The position numbers were made by a program, and so were the translations under genes. Shown here piece by piece: positions 3,032-13,063 of a stretch of DNA of 64,000 bases. The notes below the pieces were generated by a model. It had not been told where the DNA came from. It did no database searches and worked only from the letters and a program-made list of their open reading frames with translations. How positions within the stretch are numbered: position 1 is the first letter of the stretch; every line of letters starts with the position of its first letter. Source of the stretch: Streptomyces katrae (GTDB lineage Bacteria > Actinomycetota > Actinomycetes > Streptomycetales > Streptomycetaceae); the NCBI RefSeq assembly GCF_002028425.1, contig NZ_CP020042.1:7167560-7231559 (forward strand), written 5' to 3'.

Positions 3032-4558
3032 ATGAACACGCAGGTCACGGGCGTCATCGTCGTAGGGGCCGGCGGCGCCGGACTCATGCTGGCCACCGAG
3101 CTCGCCCTCGCCGGCGTCCCCGCCGTCGTGCTGGACCGGATGCCCGGCCGCAACCTCCAGTCCCGGGCGGGGGCGATCCAGCCCCGGACCGCCGAGGTGC
3201 TCGCGCTGCGCGGCCTGCTGGACGGAGCCCTCGGGCGATCGGTCGACTACCGGCTCGTCGGCGGCCACTTCGCCGGACTGCCCGTCCCGCTGGACTACGC
3301 GGCGTGGGACACCCGCTACCCGCACCCCGTCCTGCTCCCGCAGGACCAGCTCGAAGCCGTCCTCGAGGACCGGCTCGCCGAGCTCGGCGGCCGGGTGCTC
3401 AGGGAGCACCTGCTGACCGGGCTCCGGCAGGACGCCGACGGGGTCGTGATCACCATGGCCACGCCCGCCGGCGACCGCTCGCTGCGGGGCCGTTTCCTCG
3501 TCGCGTGCGACGGCGCCCACAGCAGCGTGCGCAAGACCCTCGGAGCCGCGTTCCCCGGCCGGGCCGCCACCGTCCGCATGGCCACCGCCGATCTGCTCCT
3601 CACGGGCGAGGTCGACGACAGCACGGCCGGACACATCAGCTCGCGCATCCACACCTCGCCCGAGGGCCACTTCGCCATGATCACGCCCCTGGCGAACGGA
3701 CTGCACAAGCTCCTCTTCAGCGGCCCGCGCACGGCGCTGGCCGAGCGCGACGCCCCCGTGACGGCCGAGGAGGTCCGCGAGGTGCTGCGCGCCACCCACG
3801 GCGGCAGGCTCGACGTGGCCGAGATCCGCTACGCCTCCCGGTTCAGCGACGCGAGCCGGCAGCTGGAGCAGTACCGGCACGGCCGGGTGTTCTTCGCCGG
3901 GGACTCGGCCCACATCCACTCCCCGGCCGGCGGCCAGGGGCTCAACCTCGGTGTCCAGGACGCGTTCAACCTCGGCTGGAAGCTCGCCGCGGTCCTGCGC
4001 GGCGAGGCGGAGGAGGAACTGCTGGACACCTACCAGACCGAGCGGCACCCCGTCGCCGCCCGGGTGCTCGCCCTCACCCGGGCGCAGGGCGTCGTCATGG
4101 GCCCGCAGCGCGACGGCGGGCTGGGCGAGCTGCGCGACGTGCTCACCGACCTGCTCCGCGTGCCCGAGGCCAACCGGTACATGGCCGGTGTGATGGCCGG
4201 ACTCGACCTGCGCCTCCCCTCTCCCGACGCCGCCGAACACCCGCTGCTGGGCCTGCGGATGCCCGACCTCGACCTCGTCACGGGCGAGGGCGAGCAGGTC
4301 CGGTTCAGCGACCTGACGCGCGGCGGGCGCGGCGTCCTGCTCGACCTCGCCGACACCCCGCTCGACGCCGCGGACCCCTGGAAGGACCGGATCGTGCGGG
4401 TGCGCGCCCGGGCGGAGGAGGGTGCCGTCGACGCCGGGGCCGTACTCGTCCGCCCCGACGGGTACGTCTGCTGGGCCGGCGGCGCCGGTCTCACCGAGAC
4501 GCTCACCCGCTGGTTCGGCCCGGCCGGCCCCGGCGGCGCCGCGGGGGAGTCCGCGTGA
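3032..4558 (+). CDS. FAD-dependent aromatic monooxygenase (PheA/TfdB/RdmE type)
   Basis: A 508-residue flavoprotein hydroxylase, which uses NAD(P)H and O2 to hydroxylate aromatic or polyketide substrates. Visible: the FAD-binding GAGGAG at residues 12-17, the DG motif (CDGAHSSVRKTLG) and the GD motif (FAGDSAHIHSPAGGQG, D291). The C-terminal thioredoxin-like domain typical of this family is also there. ATG 3032 follows GGGAGG at a good distance. The divergent TetR suggests drug or aromatic-compound induction. Some homologues inactivate rifamycins or tetracyclines, but substrate cannot be told here. Confidence 0.9.
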   Translation: MNTQVTGVIVVGAGGAGLMLATELALAGVPAVVLDRMPGRNLQSRAGAIQPRTAEVLALRGLLDGALGRSVDYRLVGGHFAGLPVPLDYAAWDTRYPHPVLLPQDQLEAVLEDRLAELGGRVLREHLLTGLRQDADGVVITMATPAGDRSLRGRFLVACDGAHSSVRKTLGAAFPGRAATVRMATADLLLTGEVDDSTAGHISSRIHTSPEGHFAMITPLANGLHKLLFSGPRTALAERDAPVTAEEVREVLRATHGGRLDVAEIRYASRFSDASRQLEQYRHGRVFFAGDSAHIHSPAGGQGLNLGVQDAFNLGWKLAAVLRGEAEEELLDTYQTERHPVAARVLALTRAQGVVMGPQRDGGLGELRDVLTDLLRVPEANRYMAGVMAGLDLRLPSPDAAEHPLLGLRMPDLDLVTGEGEQVRFSDLTRGGRGVLLDLADTPLDAADPWKDRIVRVRARAEEGAVDAGAVLVRPDGYVCWAGGAGLTETLTRWFGPAGPGGAAGESA

Positions 4559-4584: not shown

Positions 4585-5403
4585 TCAGGGACGGTGCCCG
4601 GCGACCGACCGGCGCGCGACGGGGAAGTCGAAATAGGTGTCCGGGAAGGGTTCGGGCTTGTACGTGAAGTGCCACCACTCCTCGGGCAGGTTGACGAATC
4701 CCTCCGCGGCCAGCGCCGTCCGCAGCAGTAGGCGGTGCGCGCGCTGGGTCCCCTGGACGCGCGGGTCGTCGGTGTGCGACAGCGTGTCGAAGCAGTCGAA
4801 ACCCGTCCCCATGTCCACGGAGTTGTCGGGGTAGCGCTCCGCCTGGGGCGCGTAGCAGGGAACGGACTCCTGCCCCGGCCGCGGCGGGGGCGCGGGGAGC
4901 GCCGGCAGCGCCACGATCGTGAGGTCCATGGTGCTGCCGCGGCTGTGCCCTGACTTCTCCGCGATGTAACCGTCGTCGAACAGGCGCGACTTGTCGACCC
5001 GCGGATAGAACTCCGCCTTCATCCGCTCGTCGGCCAGGTCCTTCGCCCACCGCACGAAGTGGTCGACGGCGCGCTGCGGCCGGTAGCAGTCGTACACCTT
5101 GAGCGAGTACCCCTGCCGCAGGAGCTGCGCCTGCGCCCGGTGCAGGGCCTGGGCCGCCGGGCGCGTCAGGATGCAGACGGCCTGGCGGTAGCCGTCGATC
5201 CGCTCCCCGACGAAGTTGTGCGCCGCCGGGTAGCGCATCTCCTGGATGATCGTGGGGTCGACGGAGGCCAGCGCGACGAACTCCCGCGGTGCCTTGGGCT
5301 CCGGGGACAGGGCGGCGGCACCGGCACGGGGTGCCGCGGTCGCCGCGAACAGGGTCGTGGCCGCCACGGCAAGGACGAGCCGTGTCATGGGCGACGTGCT
5401 CAT
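4585..5403 (-). CDS. Secreted D-alanyl-D-alanine dipeptidase (VanX/DdpX family)
   Basis: A 272-residue zinc dipeptidase that cleaves D-Ala-D-Ala. A signal peptide is seen at residues 1-30. The VanX signature is complete: zinc ligands H153 and D160 (SGHSRGSTMD) and H245, catalytic E242 (EEWWH) and the stabilising R108 (YDCYRPQR). Unlike cytoplasmic VanX it is exported, so it more likely trims wall-derived peptides for nutrition or wall turnover than confers glycopeptide resistance; no vanH, vanA or vanRS lies nearby. ATG 5403 is preceded by GAGGAGAACCCG. It convergently faces the monooxygenase at 26 bases. Confidence 0.9.
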   Translation of the reverse strand: MSTSPMTRLVLAVAATTLFAATAAPRAGAAALSPEPKAPREFVALASVDPTIIQEMRYPAAHNFVGERIDGYRQAVCILTRPAAQALHRAQAQLLRQGYSLKVYDCYRPQRAVDHFVRWAKDLADERMKAEFYPRVDKSRLFDDGYIAEKSGHSRGSTMDLTIVALPALPAPPPRPGQESVPCYAPQAERYPDNSVDMGTGFDCFDTLSHTDDPRVQGTQRAHRLLLRTALAAEGFVNLPEEWWHFTYKPEPFPDTYFDFPVARRSVAGHRP

Positions 5404-5465
5404 CGGGTTCTCCTCGGGACTGGGGGCTCTACGCGAAGGACGATCAGTCGGTCTGCTCGTACAGG

Positions 5466-6716
5466 TCAGTGCCGCCCCGCCCGTTCGAGCGCGGCGGCGA
5501 CCCGGGCCACGCCGTCCTCCGTGGCGAGCCGGCGGGCGATGTCCCGGGCGCGCTCCCCGTAGGAGGGGTCCGTGACGGCCTGCCGCAGCGCGGACCCCAG
5601 GGCGGCGGAGTCGAGCCGGCGCAGGGGCACCACCCTGGGGGCGGTGCCCAGTTCCACGAGGCGCGAGGCCCAGAAGTGGGCGTCGAACTGCACGGGGACG
5701 GGGACGCAGGGAACGCCCGCGCGCAGGGCCGCGCCGGTCGTGCCCGCCCCCGCATGGTGGACGACGGCCGCCATGCGCGGGAAGAGCAGGGAGTGCGGAA
5801 CGTCGCCGATGGTGATCATGTCGTCCTGGCCGGCGGCCGACAGCCCCGCCCAGCCCCGCTGGATCACCCCGCGCAGTCCGGCCGCGCGCAGGGCGCCGAC
5901 GATCCGCGCGCTGACCCGCCCGGGATCGGGAGCGGTGGCGCTTCCCAGCCCCACGTACACCGGGGCCGGGCCGGAGTCGAGGAAGCCGACGAGCTCCGCG
6001 GGGAGTTCGCCGGTCGTCTCGTGGGGCCACCAGTAGCCGCAGACCTCCAGGCCGGGACGCCAGTCGCGGGGCCTGGGCACGACCAGCTCGCTGAAGCCGT
6101 GCCAGACGGGCCAGCCCTGCCGCTCGCGGGCGCGGCGGGCCGCGGGCAGGCGGCCTACCGGCAGGCCGTGCTCGGCGGCCAGCGACCGCGCCGCCCGGGT
6201 GAAGACGTGGTCGACGGCCGCGGTGACGGCGTCACCGCCGATCCGGTTGCCCAGCGGGCCCAGGGAGCGGGTGCCGAGCATCGGCGGCGGGAACGCGCTG
6301 GTTCCGTGCAGCGGTTGCAGGAAGAGGCCCATGCTCGGCCGGTCCAGGCCCTGCGCGATGGCGTGGGCGAGGGGGGCGACCGGGCCGCCGGCCAGCACCA
6401 CGTCCGCCTCGCCCGCCTCCCGTACCATCGCGGGGGTCATCTCGGGCGCGATCCTCCTCGCCAGCGCCACGGCCCGCAGCAGCTTCACGGCCCCGGTCCG
6501 GCTGCGGTGCAGCCCCCGGCCCCGCGCCGAGTGCAACTCGGCCTTCGGGTCGCCGGGAACGGCCCGGAAGCGCACCCCCGACCCGGCGACCAGCGGTTCG
6601 AACAGTCCGTGGGTCACCAGGGTGACCTCGTGTCCGGCCCGGACCAGTCCGGCTCCCAGGCCCGTGTACGGCGCGACGTCCCCGCGCGACCCGGCCGTCA
6701 TGATGGCGATCCTCAC
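5466..6716 (-). CDS. MGT-type glycosyltransferase (GT1 family)
   Basis: A 416-residue GT-B-fold glycosyltransferase of the macrolide/sterol glycosyltransferase group. The N-terminal acceptor domain begins with the family hallmark MRIAIMTAGSRGDVAPY, and the C-terminal donor site shows HHAGAGTTGAALRAGVP, which binds the nucleotide-sugar phosphates. GTG start at 6716. Such stand-alone enzymes glycosylate lipids or inactivate macrolides; there are no polyketide or deoxysugar genes nearby to fix the acceptor. It lies 62 bases upstream of the dipeptidase on the same strand and may share its transcript. Confidence 0.9.
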   Translation of the reverse strand: MRIAIMTAGSRGDVAPYTGLGAGLVRAGHEVTLVTHGLFEPLVAGSGVRFRAVPGDPKAELHSARGRGLHRSRTGAVKLLRAVALARRIAPEMTPAMVREAGEADVVLAGGPVAPLAHAIAQGLDRPSMGLFLQPLHGTSAFPPPMLGTRSLGPLGNRIGGDAVTAAVDHVFTRAARSLAAEHGLPVGRLPAARRARERQGWPVWHGFSELVVPRPRDWRPGLEVCGYWWPHETTGELPAELVGFLDSGPAPVYVGLGSATAPDPGRVSARIVGALRAAGLRGVIQRGWAGLSAAGQDDMITIGDVPHSLLFPRMAAVVHHAGAGTTGAALRAGVPCVPVPVQFDAHFWASRLVELGTAPRVVPLRRLDSAALGSALRQAVTDPSYGERARDIARRLATEDGVARVAAALERAGRH

Positions 6717-6860: not shown

Positions 6861-6977
6861 ACCAGCGCCTCCGGAGCCGTGACGGCAGGTCATCGTCCCC
6901 TTCCCGCAGCCGCGTTGTCAGTGGCGGCCGTTAGCGTCGGGGGTATTGGAAGGGCCGTTTCCCGACAGGAGTGGACG

Positions 6978-7655
6978 ATGACCGACAACCGTGTGCAGCC
7001 CGCGCTCAAGGTGGTGCTGACCGACGTCAACGAGCGAGTGGTCCAGGCATGGCGGACGGCGTTCGCGGACACCCCCGGGATCGAGATCCGCAGGGGTTCG
7101 ATCCTCGACGAGGACGTCGACGCCTGGGTCACGCCGACCAACTCCCGGGGCCGGATGGACGGCGGGGTCGACGCCGCCATCAAGCGGCACCTCGGAGCCG
7201 GCATCCAGCTGCGCGTGCAGCGGGCGATCCGGGACCGGTTCGCCGGGACGCTCCCGGTGGGCAGCGCGGTCTGCGTCCCGTCGGGGGCGGCCGTCCCCCG
7301 CTACCTGATATCGACGCCGACGATGGCGCAGTCCTCGCAGAACGTGAGGGACACGCTGAACGTGGCCCTGGCCTGCGCCGCCGCGTTCCAGGCAGTGCAC
7401 CGGCAGAACCGGCGGGCGCCGGGCAGCATCCGGTCGGTGGCGCTGGTCGGGATGGGCGCGCAGACCGGCCGGGTCCCCGCCCGGGTCTGCGCCAACCTGA
7501 TGTGGACCGGCTACACCCTCTTCCACGACCACTGGTTCGAGGACGACGACGAGCTGCGCGCCACGATCACCGCCCAGCTCGACGGGATCGAGGACGGGCC
7601 GGCCGCCGGGCGGGTGCGGATCGTGCCACCGAAAGGGCATTCCTTTCGCCGCTGA
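6978..7655 (+). CDS. Macro-domain protein (ADP-ribose binding or hydrolysing)
   Basis: A 225-residue protein with a macro fold. Residues 40-75 carry the family signature: GSILDEDVDAWVTPTNSRG followed by GGVDAAIKRHLG, the equivalent of the N-x-(G)-GGGVDGAI loop that holds ADP-ribose. Macro domains bind ADP-ribose, and many remove it from proteins or DNA. ATG 6978 follows AGGAG. The next gene, 73 bases downstream on the same strand, encodes a UDG-ADP-ribosyltransferase fusion, so this protein is the obvious candidate for reversing that enzyme's modification or acting as its antitoxin. Longer than a minimal macro domain, with divergent flanks; hydrolase activity is inferred. Confidence 0.88.
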   Translation: MTDNRVQPALKVVLTDVNERVVQAWRTAFADTPGIEIRRGSILDEDVDAWVTPTNSRGRMDGGVDAAIKRHLGAGIQLRVQRAIRDRFAGTLPVGSAVCVPSGAAVPRYLISTPTMAQSSQNVRDTLNVALACAAAFQAVHRQNRRAPGSIRSVALVGMGAQTGRVPARVCANLMWTGYTLFHDHWFEDDDELRATITAQLDGIEDGPAAGRVRIVPPKGHSFRR

Positions 7656-7728
7656 CGGCGCCCACCCCGCCGGCGGGCACGCCGGCCCCCCGCACCCCAC
7701 CAGCACGACGCCCGGGAGCCCTTCCCCC

Positions 7729-9360
7729 ATGAACGACGCCAACCCCGCCCCCGCCCAGCCCGACGCGGCCGACCCGTTGCACCTGAGCGAGCTCTTCAAG
7801 GGCGGAGGTGAACCCTGGCTCCCGCTGCTGAAGCCCGTCATCGAGGCGCAGCCGGACGCCGCCCGGTTCATCGGCCAGGGCCGCAGCCCGGAGGTCGTCC
7901 CGGTCCGCGAGCTGACCTTCCAGGCCCTCAAGCCCCACCCGCCGCACAAGTGGAAGGTCGTCGTCTTCGGCCAGAACCCCTATCCGCGGCCGGAGAGCGC
8001 CACCGGCATCGCCATGTTCGACAACACCTTCAACGACTGGAAGGACAGCCAGTTCGGCCGGGTCGTCAGCATCCGCTGCATCATCAAGGCCGCCGCGATG
8101 TGGAAGTACGGCATCGCGAAGAAGACCCCGATCGCCGACGTCCGCGCCCTGCTGAAGGAGCGGGACACGGTCCAGCCGCCGGAGTGGTTCCAGGCGATGC
8201 TCACCCAGGGCGTCCTCCTGCTGAACGCCGCGCTCACCGCCAGCGCCGACGGCGCGATGGGTGCCGACCGGCACACCGCGTTCTGGAGGCCCGTCGCCGA
8301 ACGGATCGTCGAGGAGATCCTCCAGGCCAAGCAGGACGCCGACGAGGAGGACCGCAGCGTGGTCTTCGCCTGGTGGGGGGCGCACGCCCGCAGCCTGAAG
8401 AAGGTGGTCCTGCGCCTGCAGAAGAAGTACCCGGACGTCGAGGTCCGGCACATCGACCACGCCAACCCCGCCGCCCAGGGCGACATCTTCTGCGAGGGCG
8501 ACCACTTCGCCACGGTGAACGACGCCCTCGCGTCCCTGGGCGCCGAGCCGGTCGACTGGCTGCCGAGCACCGGCTGGAACCAGAGCCCCGAAGGCGCCCC
8601 GCCCGGCGGCGCGGACGGCGAGGTCGCGGCGCGCATGGGGGCCTTCATTGCCTCGACCATGGAACTGCACCAGCTGTACCTGGAGCGGCTCACCAGCGTC
8701 AAGGACGAGGGCCTGGTCCTCCCGGCGATCACCGGCGTGTTCGACACCCCGCCGACGGACTTCCGGGACGCGCTCGCACCGGTGGCCGAGGTGCTGCCCG
8801 GCCTGGGCCGGCACATCGACCGGTCCCACGAGTTCGGCAAGCGGCGAGCGGACGAGGCCGCCGGCGCCGGCCGGCCGTCCGCCGACGCGATCGCCGCGCT
8901 CTACCTCTACACCTGCGAGTCCGCCTTCTACCGTGAGATCAACGCCGTCCTCCGCTCCCCGGACCGGACCGCACTCGTGCCGTACCTCCCCTACCTGCGG
9001 CTGCTGTTCTCCGCCGTCTCGCAACTGCCCGCCCACACCCGGCCGCTGTGGCGCGGCGTATCGCTGGACCTGCGCGCCCAGTACCCGGTCGGGGGGACGG
9101 TGACCTGGTGGGGCGTCTCCTCGTGCACCTCGGAGCTGAGCGTGGCCCGTTCTTTCCTCGGCAGCCGCGGCAAGCGGACGCTCTTCGAGGTGACCCCCGC
9201 CCGCGCGGTGGGCATCCGCAGCTTCTCGGCCTTCACCGGCGAGGAGGAGTACATCCTCGCCCCGGGGACCCAGCTCAAGGTGACGGACGTGAAGACCGAG
9301 CGCGGCGGCCTGTGCACGGTCAGACTGACCGAGGCGGAGGCCGGCCCCCTCGTCTCCTGA
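7729..9360 (+). CDS. Uracil-DNA-glycosylase-like / ADP-ribosyltransferase fusion protein
   Basis: A 543-residue two-domain protein. Residues about 70-270 resemble family 1 uracil-DNA glycosylase: GQNPYPRPESATGIAMF (81-97) fits the GQDPYHGPGQAHGL motif, VVFAWWGAHARSLK (211-224) the central strand, and HANPAAQGDIFCEGDHF (244-260) the HPSP loop. The catalytic Asp is Asn (N83) and the following His is Pro (P86), so glycosylase activity may be weak, altered or lost. Residues about 385-540 form an R-S-E type mono-ADP-ribosyltransferase: R442 (LWRGV), SSCTS at 464-468, and the ExE motif E505-E507 (GEEEYILAPGT), all intact. Follows the macro-domain gene. Interpretation: a DNA-targeting domain delivering an NAD-consuming ADP-ribosyltransferase. 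Confidence 0.87.
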   Translation: MNDANPAPAQPDAADPLHLSELFKGGGEPWLPLLKPVIEAQPDAARFIGQGRSPEVVPVRELTFQALKPHPPHKWKVVVFGQNPYPRPESATGIAMFDNTFNDWKDSQFGRVVSIRCIIKAAAMWKYGIAKKTPIADVRALLKERDTVQPPEWFQAMLTQGVLLLNAALTASADGAMGADRHTAFWRPVAERIVEEILQAKQDADEEDRSVVFAWWGAHARSLKKVVLRLQKKYPDVEVRHIDHANPAAQGDIFCEGDHFATVNDALASLGAEPVDWLPSTGWNQSPEGAPPGGADGEVAARMGAFIASTMELHQLYLERLTSVKDEGLVLPAITGVFDTPPTDFRDALAPVAEVLPGLGRHIDRSHEFGKRRADEAAGAGRPSADAIAALYLYTCESAFYREINAVLRSPDRTALVPYLPYLRLLFSAVSQLPAHTRPLWRGVSLDLRAQYPVGGTVTWWGVSSCTSELSVARSFLGSRGKRTLFEVTPARAVGIRSFSAFTGEEEYILAPGTQLKVTDVKTERGGLCTVRLTEAEAGPLVS

Positions 9361-9564: not shown

Positions 9565-10635
9565 ATGGCCCGTCGGACCATCCGCCTCGTGGGACTCGGA
9601 CTCGCGCTCGCCGCGACCGTGCTGAGCCCGTTGTCCGCCGCGGCGGCCACCCCGCCGCCCCCCGGCCCGCGTGCGCCCGACACCTGCGCCCTGCGGCCGA
9701 AGCCCTCCGGCAAGGTCCTCCAGGGGTACTGGGAGAACTGGGACGGCGCCGCCAACGGAGTCCACCCGCCCCTCGGCTGGATCCCCCTCACCGACAGCCG
9801 CATCCGCGGCCACGGCTACAACGTGGTCAACGCGGCCTTCCCGGTGATCCGCTCGGACGGCACCGTGCTGTGGGAGGACGGGATGGACAGCACGGTGAAG
9901 GTGCCCACCCCCGCGGAGATGTGCCAGGCCAAACAGGACGGACTCACCGTGCTGATGTCCATCGGCGGCGCCGCGGCCGGCATCGACCTCGGCTCCGCCG
10001 CCGTCGCCGACCGCTTCGTGGAGACCATCGTCCCCCTCCTCAAGAAGTACAACTTCGACGGGATCGACATCGACATCGAGACCGGTCTCGTCGGCTCGGG
10101 GAGCATCACGCAGCTCTCCCCGTCCCAGTCCAACCTGATCCGCATCATCGACGGCGTACTCGCCCGGATGCCGGACGGCTTCGGTCTCACGATGGCCCCC
10201 GAGACCGCCTACGTCACCGGCGGCAGCGTGGCGTACGGCTCGATCTGGGGCGCGTACCTGCCCATCGTCAAGAAGTACGCGGACAACGGCCGCCTGTGGT
10301 GGCTGAACATGCAGTACTACAACGGCAGCATGTACGGCTGCAACGCGGACTCCTATGCGGCGGGCACCGTCAGGGGCTTCACGGCGCAGACGGACTGCCT
10401 CGACCGCGGGCTGGTCGTCCAGAACACCACCGTCAAGGTCCCCTACGACAAGCAGGTCCCCGGCCTCCCGGCCCAACCGGGCGCCGGCGACGGCTACATG
10501 ACCCCCGCTCTCGTCGCCCAGGCGTGGAACTCCTACGGCGGCCGGCTCAAGGGCCTGATGACCTGGTCCCTCAACTGGGACGGCTCCCGCAACTGGACGT
10601 TCGGCGACAACGCCAGGACCCTCCAGGGCCGCTGA
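9565..10635 (+). CDS. Secreted GH18 chitinase
   Basis: A 356-residue exported glycoside hydrolase of family 18 that should hydrolyse chitin. A signal peptide spans residues 1-28. The catalytic motif is FDGIDIDIE at 164-172, with proton donor E172; the second conserved segment is SIGG at 132-135. No carbohydrate-binding module is attached: it is essentially a single catalytic domain. ATG 9565 is preceded by GAAGGGAG. The DasR-like site upstream indicates induction by chitin or GlcNAc metabolism. Faces a convergent gene across a strong bidirectional hairpin. Confidence 0.93.
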   Translation: MARRTIRLVGLGLALAATVLSPLSAAAATPPPPGPRAPDTCALRPKPSGKVLQGYWENWDGAANGVHPPLGWIPLTDSRIRGHGYNVVNAAFPVIRSDGTVLWEDGMDSTVKVPTPAEMCQAKQDGLTVLMSIGGAAAGIDLGSAAVADRFVETIVPLLKKYNFDGIDIDIETGLVGSGSITQLSPSQSNLIRIIDGVLARMPDGFGLTMAPETAYVTGGSVAYGSIWGAYLPIVKKYADNGRLWWLNMQYYNGSMYGCNADSYAAGTVRGFTAQTDCLDRGLVVQNTTVKVPYDKQVPGLPAQPGAGDGYMTPALVAQAWNSYGGRLKGLMTWSLNWDGSRNWTFGDNARTLQGR

Positions 10636-11633: not shown

Positions 11634-12350
11634 TTGACGGAGGTGGAGCACACGACGCAGACCGCGACCGTCGCGGGGCTGCTCGCGGCGGCTGCCGAGG
11701 GGCAGGGCGGGGCGTTGTGGCGACTGCGGGGGGCCGAGCGGCAGCTCGACGCCAATCTCGTGCGCCATCTGCCCGGGACCGGGGGAGCGCCCTCCACCGA
11801 GGGATCCGTCGACGTCATGATGGTCGTCGTCTCGGGTACGGGCGTCCTGACCCTGGACGGCGAGCAGTCCCATCTCTCCCCGGGATTCATGGCGTTGCTG
11901 CCGCGCGGTGCCGTCCGGGCGCTGCTGGCCGGCCCCCAGGGGCTGGTCGTGCTGACCGTCCACCGCAGGCGCCGGGGGATGAGCATCGCGCCGGCCGCCC
12001 CCGCCACGCCGCCCCGGACCTGCGCCCTGCATCTCGTCTGCGCCCACTGCCACCGGCACGCGATCGAGGTCGACGCCCGCTACTGCTCCGGCTGCGGCAC
12101 CCCGCTGGCGGCCCGGCCGGCGGGCGGCGGCCGACCCCGGTCAGCCGGGGCCGTCGACCGGCACGCCCAGCCGGCCCGCCACCGTGGTGAGGGCCGCACC
12201 GAGCGGCAGGGCGACCCGGGTGACGGCCTGCCGGTCGCCCCGGGTCCGGTCCCGGTTGACGATCACCACGGGCTTCCCGGCCTCAGACGCCTGCCGGACG
12301 AAGCGGAGCCCCGACATCACCGTCAGCGAGGAGCCCAGGACCAGCAGTGA
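11634..12350 (+). CDS. Cupin-domain protein with C-terminal zinc ribbon
   Basis: A 238-residue protein with TTG start behind GGAGGGGAC. Residues about 30-110 look like a small double-stranded beta-helix (cupin) domain, in the style of AraC-type ligand-binding domains. A zinc ribbon follows: C136-x2-C139 and C151-x2-C154 (CAHCHR, CSGCGTPL). After residue 160 the frame runs another 78 codons antisense over the end of the convergent sirtuin gene, with no recognisable domain, so the last third may be fortuitous extension. Function unknown; metal-dependent sensing is a guess. Confidence 0.7.
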   Translation: MTEVEHTTQTATVAGLLAAAAEGQGGALWRLRGAERQLDANLVRHLPGTGGAPSTEGSVDVMMVVVSGTGVLTLDGEQSHLSPGFMALLPRGAVRALLAGPQGLVVLTVHRRRRGMSIAPAAPATPPRTCALHLVCAHCHRHAIEVDARYCSGCGTPLAARPAGGGRPRSAGAVDRHAQPARHRGEGRTERQGDPGDGLPVAPGPVPVDDHHGLPGLRRLPDEAEPRHHRQRGAQDQQ

Positions 12351-13028
12351 GGCCGCCTCCCGGACCAGCGAGCGGCAGTGCTCGACGCGGCGCGGCGGGA
12401 CGGATTCGCCGAAGAACACCACGTCGGGCTTGAGGACGCCGCCGCAGGCCGCGCACGGCACCACGCGGAAGTCCCCGACCTGCTCGCGGGTGAGGTCCGC
12501 GTCACCGTCCGGATTGAGGCCGGCGGCCACGGGCGCGAAACCGGCGTTGGCCTCCTCCAGCCGCCGCGCCAGCTCGCGGCGCGGGCTGAGGGCGCCGCAG
12601 GAGAGGCAGACGACCCGCTCCAGGCTCCCGTGGAGCTCGACCACGTCCTCGCTGCCGGCGGCCTGGTGCAGACCGTCGACGTTCTGGGTGATCACGCCCG
12701 AGAGCAGGCCGTGGCGGGCGAACGCGGCGACGGCCCGGTGGCCGGCGTTGGGCCGGGCCCGGCCGAAGGTGCGCCAGCCGAGGTGGCCGCGCGCCCAGTA
12801 CCGCTGCCGGGCCCCGGCGTCGGCGGTGAACTCCTGGTACGTCATCGGCGTGTGCCGGCTCAGGCTCCCGCCCTCGCCACGGTAGTCGGGGATGCCCGAT
12901 TCCGTGGAGATCCCCGCCCCGCTGAGCACCAGCACACCGCCGGCGCGCAGGGCGTCCGTGACCGGCCGAAGGTCCGTGGTGCCCGGAGGCAGGTCCTCCG
13001 CGGGGGTCCAGTCCAGGGTGGGGCGCAT
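12141..13028 (-). CDS. NAD-dependent protein deacylase, SIR2 family
   Basis: A 295-residue sirtuin that removes acyl groups from lysines using NAD, giving nicotinamide and O-acetyl-ADP-ribose. Visible: NAD-binding GAGIS (37-41) and QNVDGLH (115-121), catalytic H133 (ELHGS), and a four-cysteine zinc site C141, C144, C192, C195. The start ATG 13028 has GGAGG seven bases upstream; an ATG six bases earlier (13034) lies too close to it. Convergently overlaps the cupin gene by 210 bases. Stand-alone; its targets are unknown. Confidence 0.93.
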   Translation of the reverse strand: MRPTLDWTPAEDLPPGTTDLRPVTDALRAGGVLVLSGAGISTESGIPDYRGEGGSLSRHTPMTYQEFTADAGARQRYWARGHLGWRTFGRARPNAGHRAVAAFARHGLLSGVITQNVDGLHQAAGSEDVVELHGSLERVVCLSCGALSPRRELARRLEEANAGFAPVAAGLNPDGDADLTREQVGDFRVVPCAACGGVLKPDVVFFGESVPPRRVEHCRSLVREAASLLVLGSSLTVMSGLRFVRQASEAGKPVVIVNRDRTRGDRQAVTRVALPLGAALTTVAGRLGVPVDGPG

Positions 13029-13063
13029 GCGCATGCCTCCAGGGTACGGACCCCGCGCACGGG

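What the first reader, a model, noticed from the sequence alone, without database searches (positions are those of the whole stretch)
6978..9360. Candidate new ADP-ribosylation module: macro-domain protein plus uracil-DNA-glycosylase/ADP-ribosyltransferase fusion
Sequence: the macro signature is at residues 40-75 of the first protein. The second protein joins a UDG-like domain to a complete R-S-E ADP-ribosyltransferase (R442, SSCTS at 464-468, E505-x-E507). Same strand, 73 bases apart. Established: macro domains reverse ADP-ribosylation, and in DarTG a macrodomain antitoxin counters a DNA-modifying ADP-ribosyltransferase. Inference: the UDG-like domain brings the transferase to DNA (perhaps uracil-containing or damaged DNA, or phage DNA), and the macro protein protects the host. 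I know of no described system with this pairing; gene order (eraser first) is typical of toxin-antitoxin pairs.
Basis: partly seen in the sequence, partly recalled or inferred. Interest (0 to 1): 0.92.

Follow-up and report, generated by a model that had tools for sequence, protein, structure and literature searches.

The report
Paired ADP-ribose writer and eraser
Streptomyces bacteria carry a two-gene cassette in which an enzyme predicted to attach ADP-ribose is built onto a DNA-base-recognising domain and is accompanied by an enzyme predicted to remove ADP-ribose, in some species as one protein, and its target and purpose are not yet known.

Summary
Confirmed and extended. The window holds a macrodomain gene (6978-7655) and a UDG-fold/R-S-ExE ADP-ribosyltransferase gene (7729-9360). 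They are a real module: both occur in the same 50 of 295 Streptomyces and the same 13 of 394 class-wide genomes; no other neighbour cluster is shared by more than 6 of 63 loci. The UDG domain has lost the catalytic Asp, the stacking Phe and the HPSPLS loop in 117 of 117 sequences: probably a reader, not a glycosylase. The ART fold is nearest Tre1 and ART2.2; with ExE this points to arginine.

New: three layouts: divergent (49), tandem (30), one 750-839-aa ORF (35). In 30 of 30 tandem loci the second gene lies in the +1 frame over 15 spacer lengths, and 26 of 30 have the very rare codon TTT before C at one fixed place near the macro stop; 0 of 47 divergent and 0 of 34 fused do. I read this as +1 programmed frameshifting that makes a macro-UDG-ART protein. 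Against it as the only route: a kept start site and an unbiased linker. Toxicity, target and defence role are untested.

The parts
6978..7655 (+). Macrodomain protein (225 aa, P0001), predicted ADP-ribosyl hydrolase; SD-like AGGAG at 6967-6971 read from the sequence
   Evidence: Pfam PF01661 E 1.5e-11; linkage
7140..7172 (+). Macro catalytic loop N55-x6-GGV-D65 (MacroD-type signature)
   Evidence: Nx6GG[V/L]D in 100 of 112 macro rows, with T in 8 and A in 4 at the variable place; motif definition from a passage of PMC10951314
7632..7655 (+). Candidate +1 frameshift site AAA GGG CAT TCC TTT C.. up to the macro stop TGA 7653-7655; slip codon TTT 7644-7646, next base C 7647
   Evidence: TTT_C at this place in 26 of 30 distinct tandem loci, 0 of 47 divergent macro ends, 0 of 34 fused linkers; 2 of 2 new tandem loci
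7630..7648 (+). Inverted repeat CGAAAGG-GCATT-CCTTTCG overlapping the candidate site (rival signal)
   Evidence: fold; at these positions 7 of 7 pairs in 8 of 30 tandem loci, 6 of 7 in 6 more, 3-5 of 7 in the other 16
7648..7728 (+). Linker, open in the +1 frame, resembles the linker of single-ORF relatives
7714..7731 (+). SD-like GGGAG and ATG of the UDG-ART gene (independent start)
   Evidence: SD-like plus ATG/GTG in 29 of 30 tandem, 11 of 34 fused, 36 of 47 divergent loci (first count: 29/30, 10/34, 37/48)
7729..9360 (+). UDG-ART fusion protein (543 aa, P0002)
7774..8565 (+). UDG-fold domain, residues 16-279, with N83 for the catalytic Asp, M96 for the stacking Phe, DHxNPAAQ for HPSPLS
   Evidence: sequence homology; residues
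8719..9357 (+). ART domain, residues 331-543: R442, S464-T467, E505-x-E507

Best explanation
A self-contained ADP-ribosylation cassette. The writer is an R-S-ExE ART aimed by a UDG-fold domain that most likely still binds a DNA base or lesion but no longer excises uracil; the eraser is a MacroD-like hydrolase that undoes or limits the mark. Shown: homology, residues, linkage, three layouts, single-ORF forms. Inferred: the ART modifies a protein arginine (or DNA) at the site the UDG domain reads, and the cassette is a stress- or phage-response switch. In the window's own clade the two genes are also joined in translation (inferred): ribosomes that slip +1 on TTT_C at the end of the macro ORF would make a macro-linker-UDG-ART protein of 793 aa, the rest stop and leave free macro protein; UDG-ART can probably also start on its own at 7729. 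In several sublineages the joined protein became permanent.
For: Linkage: identical genome sets, 50 of 295 and 13 of 394; macro adjacent in 77 of 80 named loci, the other 3 cut by a contig end within 70 bases. Single-ORF forms: 35 of 117 distinct loci, one listed as one 801-aa CDS, WP_251091506.1. Frame: 30 of 30 tandem loci at +1; 15 distinct spacer lengths, all 1 mod 3, against 18/12/11 for 41 distinct lengths in 47 divergent loci. Signal: TTT_C in 26 of 30; TTT is 16 of 2949 Phe codons elsewhere in these genes; 0 of 47 divergent, 0 of 34 fused. New loci: 7 not used before fit the rule. Tree: tandem plus fused form one clade (support 96) inside divergent; fused is nested in tandem with 5 changes, at least 4 forced by well-supported branches. 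The word CATTCCTTTCG occurs twice in the 8-Mb genome. UDG changes 117 of 117. ART fold.
Against: Linker substitutions show no codon-position bias (112/130/118 over 24 non-independent pairs) and the linker's GC by codon position (0.75/0.76/0.82) is only weakly periodic. An SD-like site and start codon stand before UDG-ART in 29 of 30 tandem loci, so the fusion is not needed to make it. Four tandem loci lack TTT_C (three have CCC followed by C or T nearby, a reading made after the fact; one has TAT_C). In 14 of 30 tandem loci the place is also a hairpin with 6 or 7 of 7 pairs. The upstream AAAGGG is not at the spacing given for +1 stimulators. MacroD-type enzymes were not known to remove arginine-linked ADP-ribose (PMC10951314, passage), and the second MacroD motif is absent. 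UDG and macro parts of the models are poor.
Confidence: 0.6

Rival explanations
1. A toxin-antitoxin or anti-phage pair of DarTG type: UDG-ART modifies DNA (its UDG domain aiming it at uracil-containing, damaged or phage DNA) and macro is the antidote.
For: Pairing of an ART with a macrodomain; patchy distribution, scattered sites, copies in plasmid records; weak DarG match of the macro, E 0.039.
Against: ExE and nearest solved folds are arginine-type; no PADLOC model matches UDG-ART at E<=1; single-polypeptide and divergent layouts; 78-91% identity between species, high for a defence gene; no full-length relative in 50,697 phage records, none in viral contigs.
Confidence: 0.25
2. The tandem genes are simply two genes; the conserved AAAGGGCATTCCTTTCG is an RNA hairpin or operator, and the frame relation is an accident of descent.
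For: Stem with 6-7 of 7 pairs in 14 of 30 tandem loci; SD and start codon in 29 of 30, linker without codon bias.
Against: TTT_C persists in the second subclade (10 of 11 rows) and in L056, where that stem has at most 5 of 7 pairs; 15 spacer lengths all in one phase; 23 of 34 fused relatives lack the SD-like start and 34 of 34 lack TTT_C.
Confidence: 0.3
3. A DNA-damage signalling pair: UDG-ART is a bacterial analogue of a PARP that marks proteins at deaminated or abasic sites, macro resets it; no toxicity.
For: UDG active-site changes while the rest of the domain is kept; purifying selection; eraser in cis in fused forms.
Against: Present in only about 17% of Streptomyces genomes (50 of 295, 66 of 392); no shared DNA-repair neighbours; target unknown.
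Confidence: 0.3

Closest known systems
DarT-DarG
   Same: ART writer next to a macrodomain eraser
   Different: Different ART class (R-S-ExE, nearest Tre1/ART2.2), a UDG-fold domain, MacroD-like loop rather than the lysine mechanism described for DarG (K80; passage of PMC10951314), single-ORF and divergent layouts
BdiUNG-like uracil-DNA glycosylases (PDB 5x3g; the name BdiUNG is recalled, one paper with it seen only as a listing)
   Same: Best PDB sequence match; GQxPYPRPESA motif
   Different: Asp to Asn, Phe to Met, altered second motif, fused to ART
Tre1-Tri1 (PDB 6drh, 'ADP-ribosyltransferase toxin/immunity pair'; the names are recalled)
   Different: Its immunity protein is of ARH type (recalled), here the partner is a macrodomain
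FseA of rhizobial ICEs (PMC5009743, passages read)
   Same: +1 frameshift on UUU near the 3' end of one ORF joins two ORFs
   Different: Unrelated proteins; reported as established there, inferred here
MavL / DUF4804 arginine-specific macrodomains (PMC10951314, passages read)
   Same: A macrodomain that undoes an arginine mark
   Different: P0001 has the MacroD loop and no DUF4804 match at E<=1

Membership tests
DarTG | DarT-family ART | tested here: not met
   ART matches PF01129; no PADLOC model at E<=1 for P0002
DarTG | macrodomain partner | tested here: met
   PF01661; the DarG model itself only E 0.039
DarTG | toxicity neutralised by partner | not testable with these tools
   no experiment
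Family-1 uracil-DNA glycosylase (active) | GQDPY catalytic Asp and HPSPLS motif | tested here: not met
   Asn in 117 of 117 and DHxNPAAQ in 117 of 117, while the host Ung and 3 of 3 plasmid UDGs compared keep Asp
UDG superfamily | sequence homology over the domain | tested here: met
UDG superfamily | UDG fold in a confident model | tested here: inconclusive
   model of this part too poor
R-S-E (ExE) ARTs, PF01129 | R, S-T-S region, ExE residues and fold | tested here: met
R-S-E (ExE) ARTs, PF01129 | arginine as acceptor | not testable with these tools
   inferred from ExE (recalled rule) and nearest solved folds
MacroD-type hydrolases | Nx6GG[V/L/I] catalytic loop | tested here: met
   100 of 112 strictly
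MacroD-type hydrolases | G[V/I/A][Y/F]G diphosphate loop | tested here: not met
   GAQTG in P0001
DUF4804 arginine-specific macrodomains | DUF4804 profile | tested here: not met
   no match at E<=1 in Pfam
Programmed +1 frameshift genes | conserved second frame and conserved slip-prone codon at the overlap | tested here: met
   frame 30 of 30, codon 26 of 30
Programmed +1 frameshift genes | protein-level selection in the joined linker | tested here: inconclusive
   no codon-position bias 112/130/118, weak GC periodicity
Programmed +1 frameshift genes | joined product made | not testable with these tools
   needs protein data

The most novel reading that the evidence does not exclude
A previously undescribed reversible ADP-ribosylation system in which a UDG turned from cutter to reader aims an arginine-type ART at a DNA feature, a MacroD-like macrodomain removes the mark (perhaps the first of its class to act on arginine), and in one clade eraser and writer are joined by a +1 programmed frameshift that sets the ratio of free eraser to joined protein.
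Probability: 0.35. Interest if true: 0.92.

Novelty: new variant of a known kind. Interest (0 to 1): 0.76.

Why it matters
It would be an ART with a built-in DNA-base reader, a new way to pair ADP-ribose writer and eraser, and a natural +1 frameshift in a chromosomal bacterial gene whose outcome evolution has several times replaced by a plain gene fusion. Each step is testable with two purified proteins and a reporter, and the arginine-versus-macrodomain mismatch puts a direct question to what MacroD-like enzymes can remove.

Tried and rejected
Ordinary glycosylase plus unrelated neighbour: rejected by the identical genome sets and by the residue changes in 117 of 117. Dispersed repeat at the shift site: CATTCCTTTCG occurs 2 times in the own genome, control 0. 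RNA structure at and after the window site: not clearly better than shuffles, z -1.24, -0.98, -0.10. Conserved neighbourhood: no other ORF cluster in more than 6 of 63 loci, with a crude ORF caller of my own (ORFs of 90 aa or more). Defence neighbours: no PADLOC match at E<=0.01 in 6 window neighbours (5, the sixth). Phage or viral origin: no full-length relative in phages or viral contigs (only two peptide patterns were scanned). UDG and macro folds by AlphaFold2: models too poor (mean pLDDT 55.8 and 55.4), so only the ART part was interpreted; no UDG or macro chain stands in the 50 rows shown by either fold search, which tests nothing. Codon-position bias in the linker: looked for, not found.

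Errors mended: L142 and L146 were first misread by my start extrapolation and corrected; L146 has a break of frame inside macro and is counted as fused but left out of the linker count. My first spacer count (14 lengths) used an anchor that failed for one row; with a better anchor gives 15, and slightly different Phe, SD and fused counts, which I use. In some searches the query 3058-4555 was in the wrong frame; repeat it in the right one (3032-4555). Of 206 relatives the tool kept the best 80, so the named set leans to close relatives; the genus and class samples were drawn by the tool. Seven of the 14 loci meant as held-out were duplicates of known ones, among them L165, a copy of L051 that lacks TTT_C; only the 7 new ones are counted.

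Full report
What is there. Window 6978-7655 encodes a 225-aa macrodomain protein and 7729-9360 a 543-aa protein joining a UDG-fold domain (about residues 16-279) to an ART domain (331-543). The window lies in an 8.06-Mb genome; that it is Streptomyces is read from the named relatives.

Linkage. In a genus sample the full-length UDG-ART is in 50 of 295 genomes (49 in one piece, G041 on two contigs); G090 and G012 hold only fragments of about 70 residues and have no macro match. The macro protein at E<=1e-40 is in 50 of 295, the same handles. In a class sample the sets (UDG-ART E<=1e-12, macro E<=1e-25) are again identical, 13 of 394, two of them in another family. A larger genus sample has UDG-ART in 66 of 392. 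In G120 the genes are on different contigs, UDG-ART lying at a contig end. Among 80 named loci (best 80 of 206) macro is adjacent in 77, and the other three contigs end within 70 bases. In L136 the pair is divergent but 2.3 kb apart. Around 63 loci with full flanks no other protein cluster was shared by more than 6: the pair travels alone. Four records of the plasmid collection carry it, one of them an 11.9-Mb replicon labelled plasmid. Both genes are under purifying selection.

Layouts. After removing identical proteins 117 loci remain: 49 divergent, 30 tandem, 35 single ORF of 750-839 aa, 3 without upstream sequence. One single-ORF form is listed as an 801-aa protein. On a quick tree (LG+G4, SH-aLRT) tandem plus fused loci form one clade (96) inside divergent ones; the named loci outside Streptomyces are divergent; fused takes 5 changes, at least 4 forced by well-supported branches. 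The root is midpoint, so direction is inferred; one row (L064) entered the tree with 24% of the columns.

Frameshift. In 30 of 30 tandem loci UDG-ART is in the +1 frame of macro; 15 distinct spacer lengths all equal 1 mod 3. Fifteen lengths need at least 14 length changes; if indels were free of frame the chance is about 3 to the minus 14, near 2e-7 (my estimate). Divergent spacers, 41 distinct lengths in 47 loci, split 18/12/11. At the fourth codon from the end, stop included, 26 of 30 have TTT followed by C; elsewhere in these genes TTT is 16 of 2949 Phe codons; 0 of 47 divergent macro ends and 0 of 34 fused linkers (L146 not scored) have it. Exceptions: L051, L074, L083, L147. Seven new loci (2 tandem, 4 fused, 1 divergent) fit a prediction written beforehand. 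A +1 shift on UUU in bacteria has a precedent in FseA (PMC5009743, passages read). AAAGGG upstream could act as an SD-like stimulator, but its spacing of 6 is not the 3 given for +1 shifts in that review.

Against. The linker shows no codon-position bias (112/130/118; the 24 pairs share branches), its GC pattern (0.75/0.76/0.82) lies between fused linkers (0.71/0.67/0.87) and divergent upstream DNA (0.66/0.68/0.68), and an SD-like site with a start codon stands in 29 of 30 tandem loci against 11 of 34 fused. In 14 of 30 the site is also a near-perfect hairpin. So the frame and the codon look selected, but how much joined product is made is open; I put the frameshift at about 0.65.

Function. 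Toxin, defence and repair roles are all inference. ExE and the nearest folds favour a protein arginine; MacroD-, PARG- and ALC1-type macrodomains had no evidence of removing arginine-linked ADP-ribose as of PMC10951314 (introduction passage). Either the target is not arginine, or this macrodomain does something new, or it only binds. Literature: 7 searches (two listed only part of their hits) showed no description of the module in their listings. Word searches inside PMC11833690 and PMC9503650 found no 'uracil' or 'glycosylase' in the held main text, and in PMC11377751 the one mention of uracil-DNA glycosylase concerns another matter. Subscription papers were not searchable.

Noticed in passing
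12144-13043, - strand: A Sir2-family gene (PF02146 E 9e-41) 2.8 kb downstream, another NAD-using enzyme; no such cluster among the neighbours shared by several loci (first 25 clusters seen).
   Followed up: partly
G090:C1:1788869-1789063 and G012:C1:3005183-3005386: Short UDG-ART fragments (67 and 71 residues, 82 and 75% identity) without a macro match: likely decayed copies.
   Followed up: no
L125:14173-16578: The gene table names the 801-aa three-part protein only 'ADP-ribosyltransferase domain-containing protein'; macro and UDG parts are not in the name.
   Followed up: yes
hits H45-H80: Outside the cassette the macro protein's relatives in plasmid and phage records (about 30-39% identity) lie in many listed rows at phage tail or tail-fibre genes; why phages carry macrodomains there is unexplained.
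   Followed up: no
L146: Macro part broken by a frame change in a single-ORF locus of an 88%-complete genome; assembly error or decay.
   Followed up: partly
loci on chromosome-sized contigs: Copies on long contigs lie mostly within about 7-16% of a contig end, as expected for accessory genes of Streptomyces arms; L136 at about 40% is an exception. Read from coordinates, not counted by script.
   Followed up: partly
3032-4555 +, 4588-5523 -, 5469-6716 -, 9565-10632 +: Neighbours are an FAD aromatic-ring hydroxylase, a D-Ala-D-Ala dipeptidase, an EryCIII-like glycosyltransferase and a GH18 protein: no functional link seen.
   Followed up: partly
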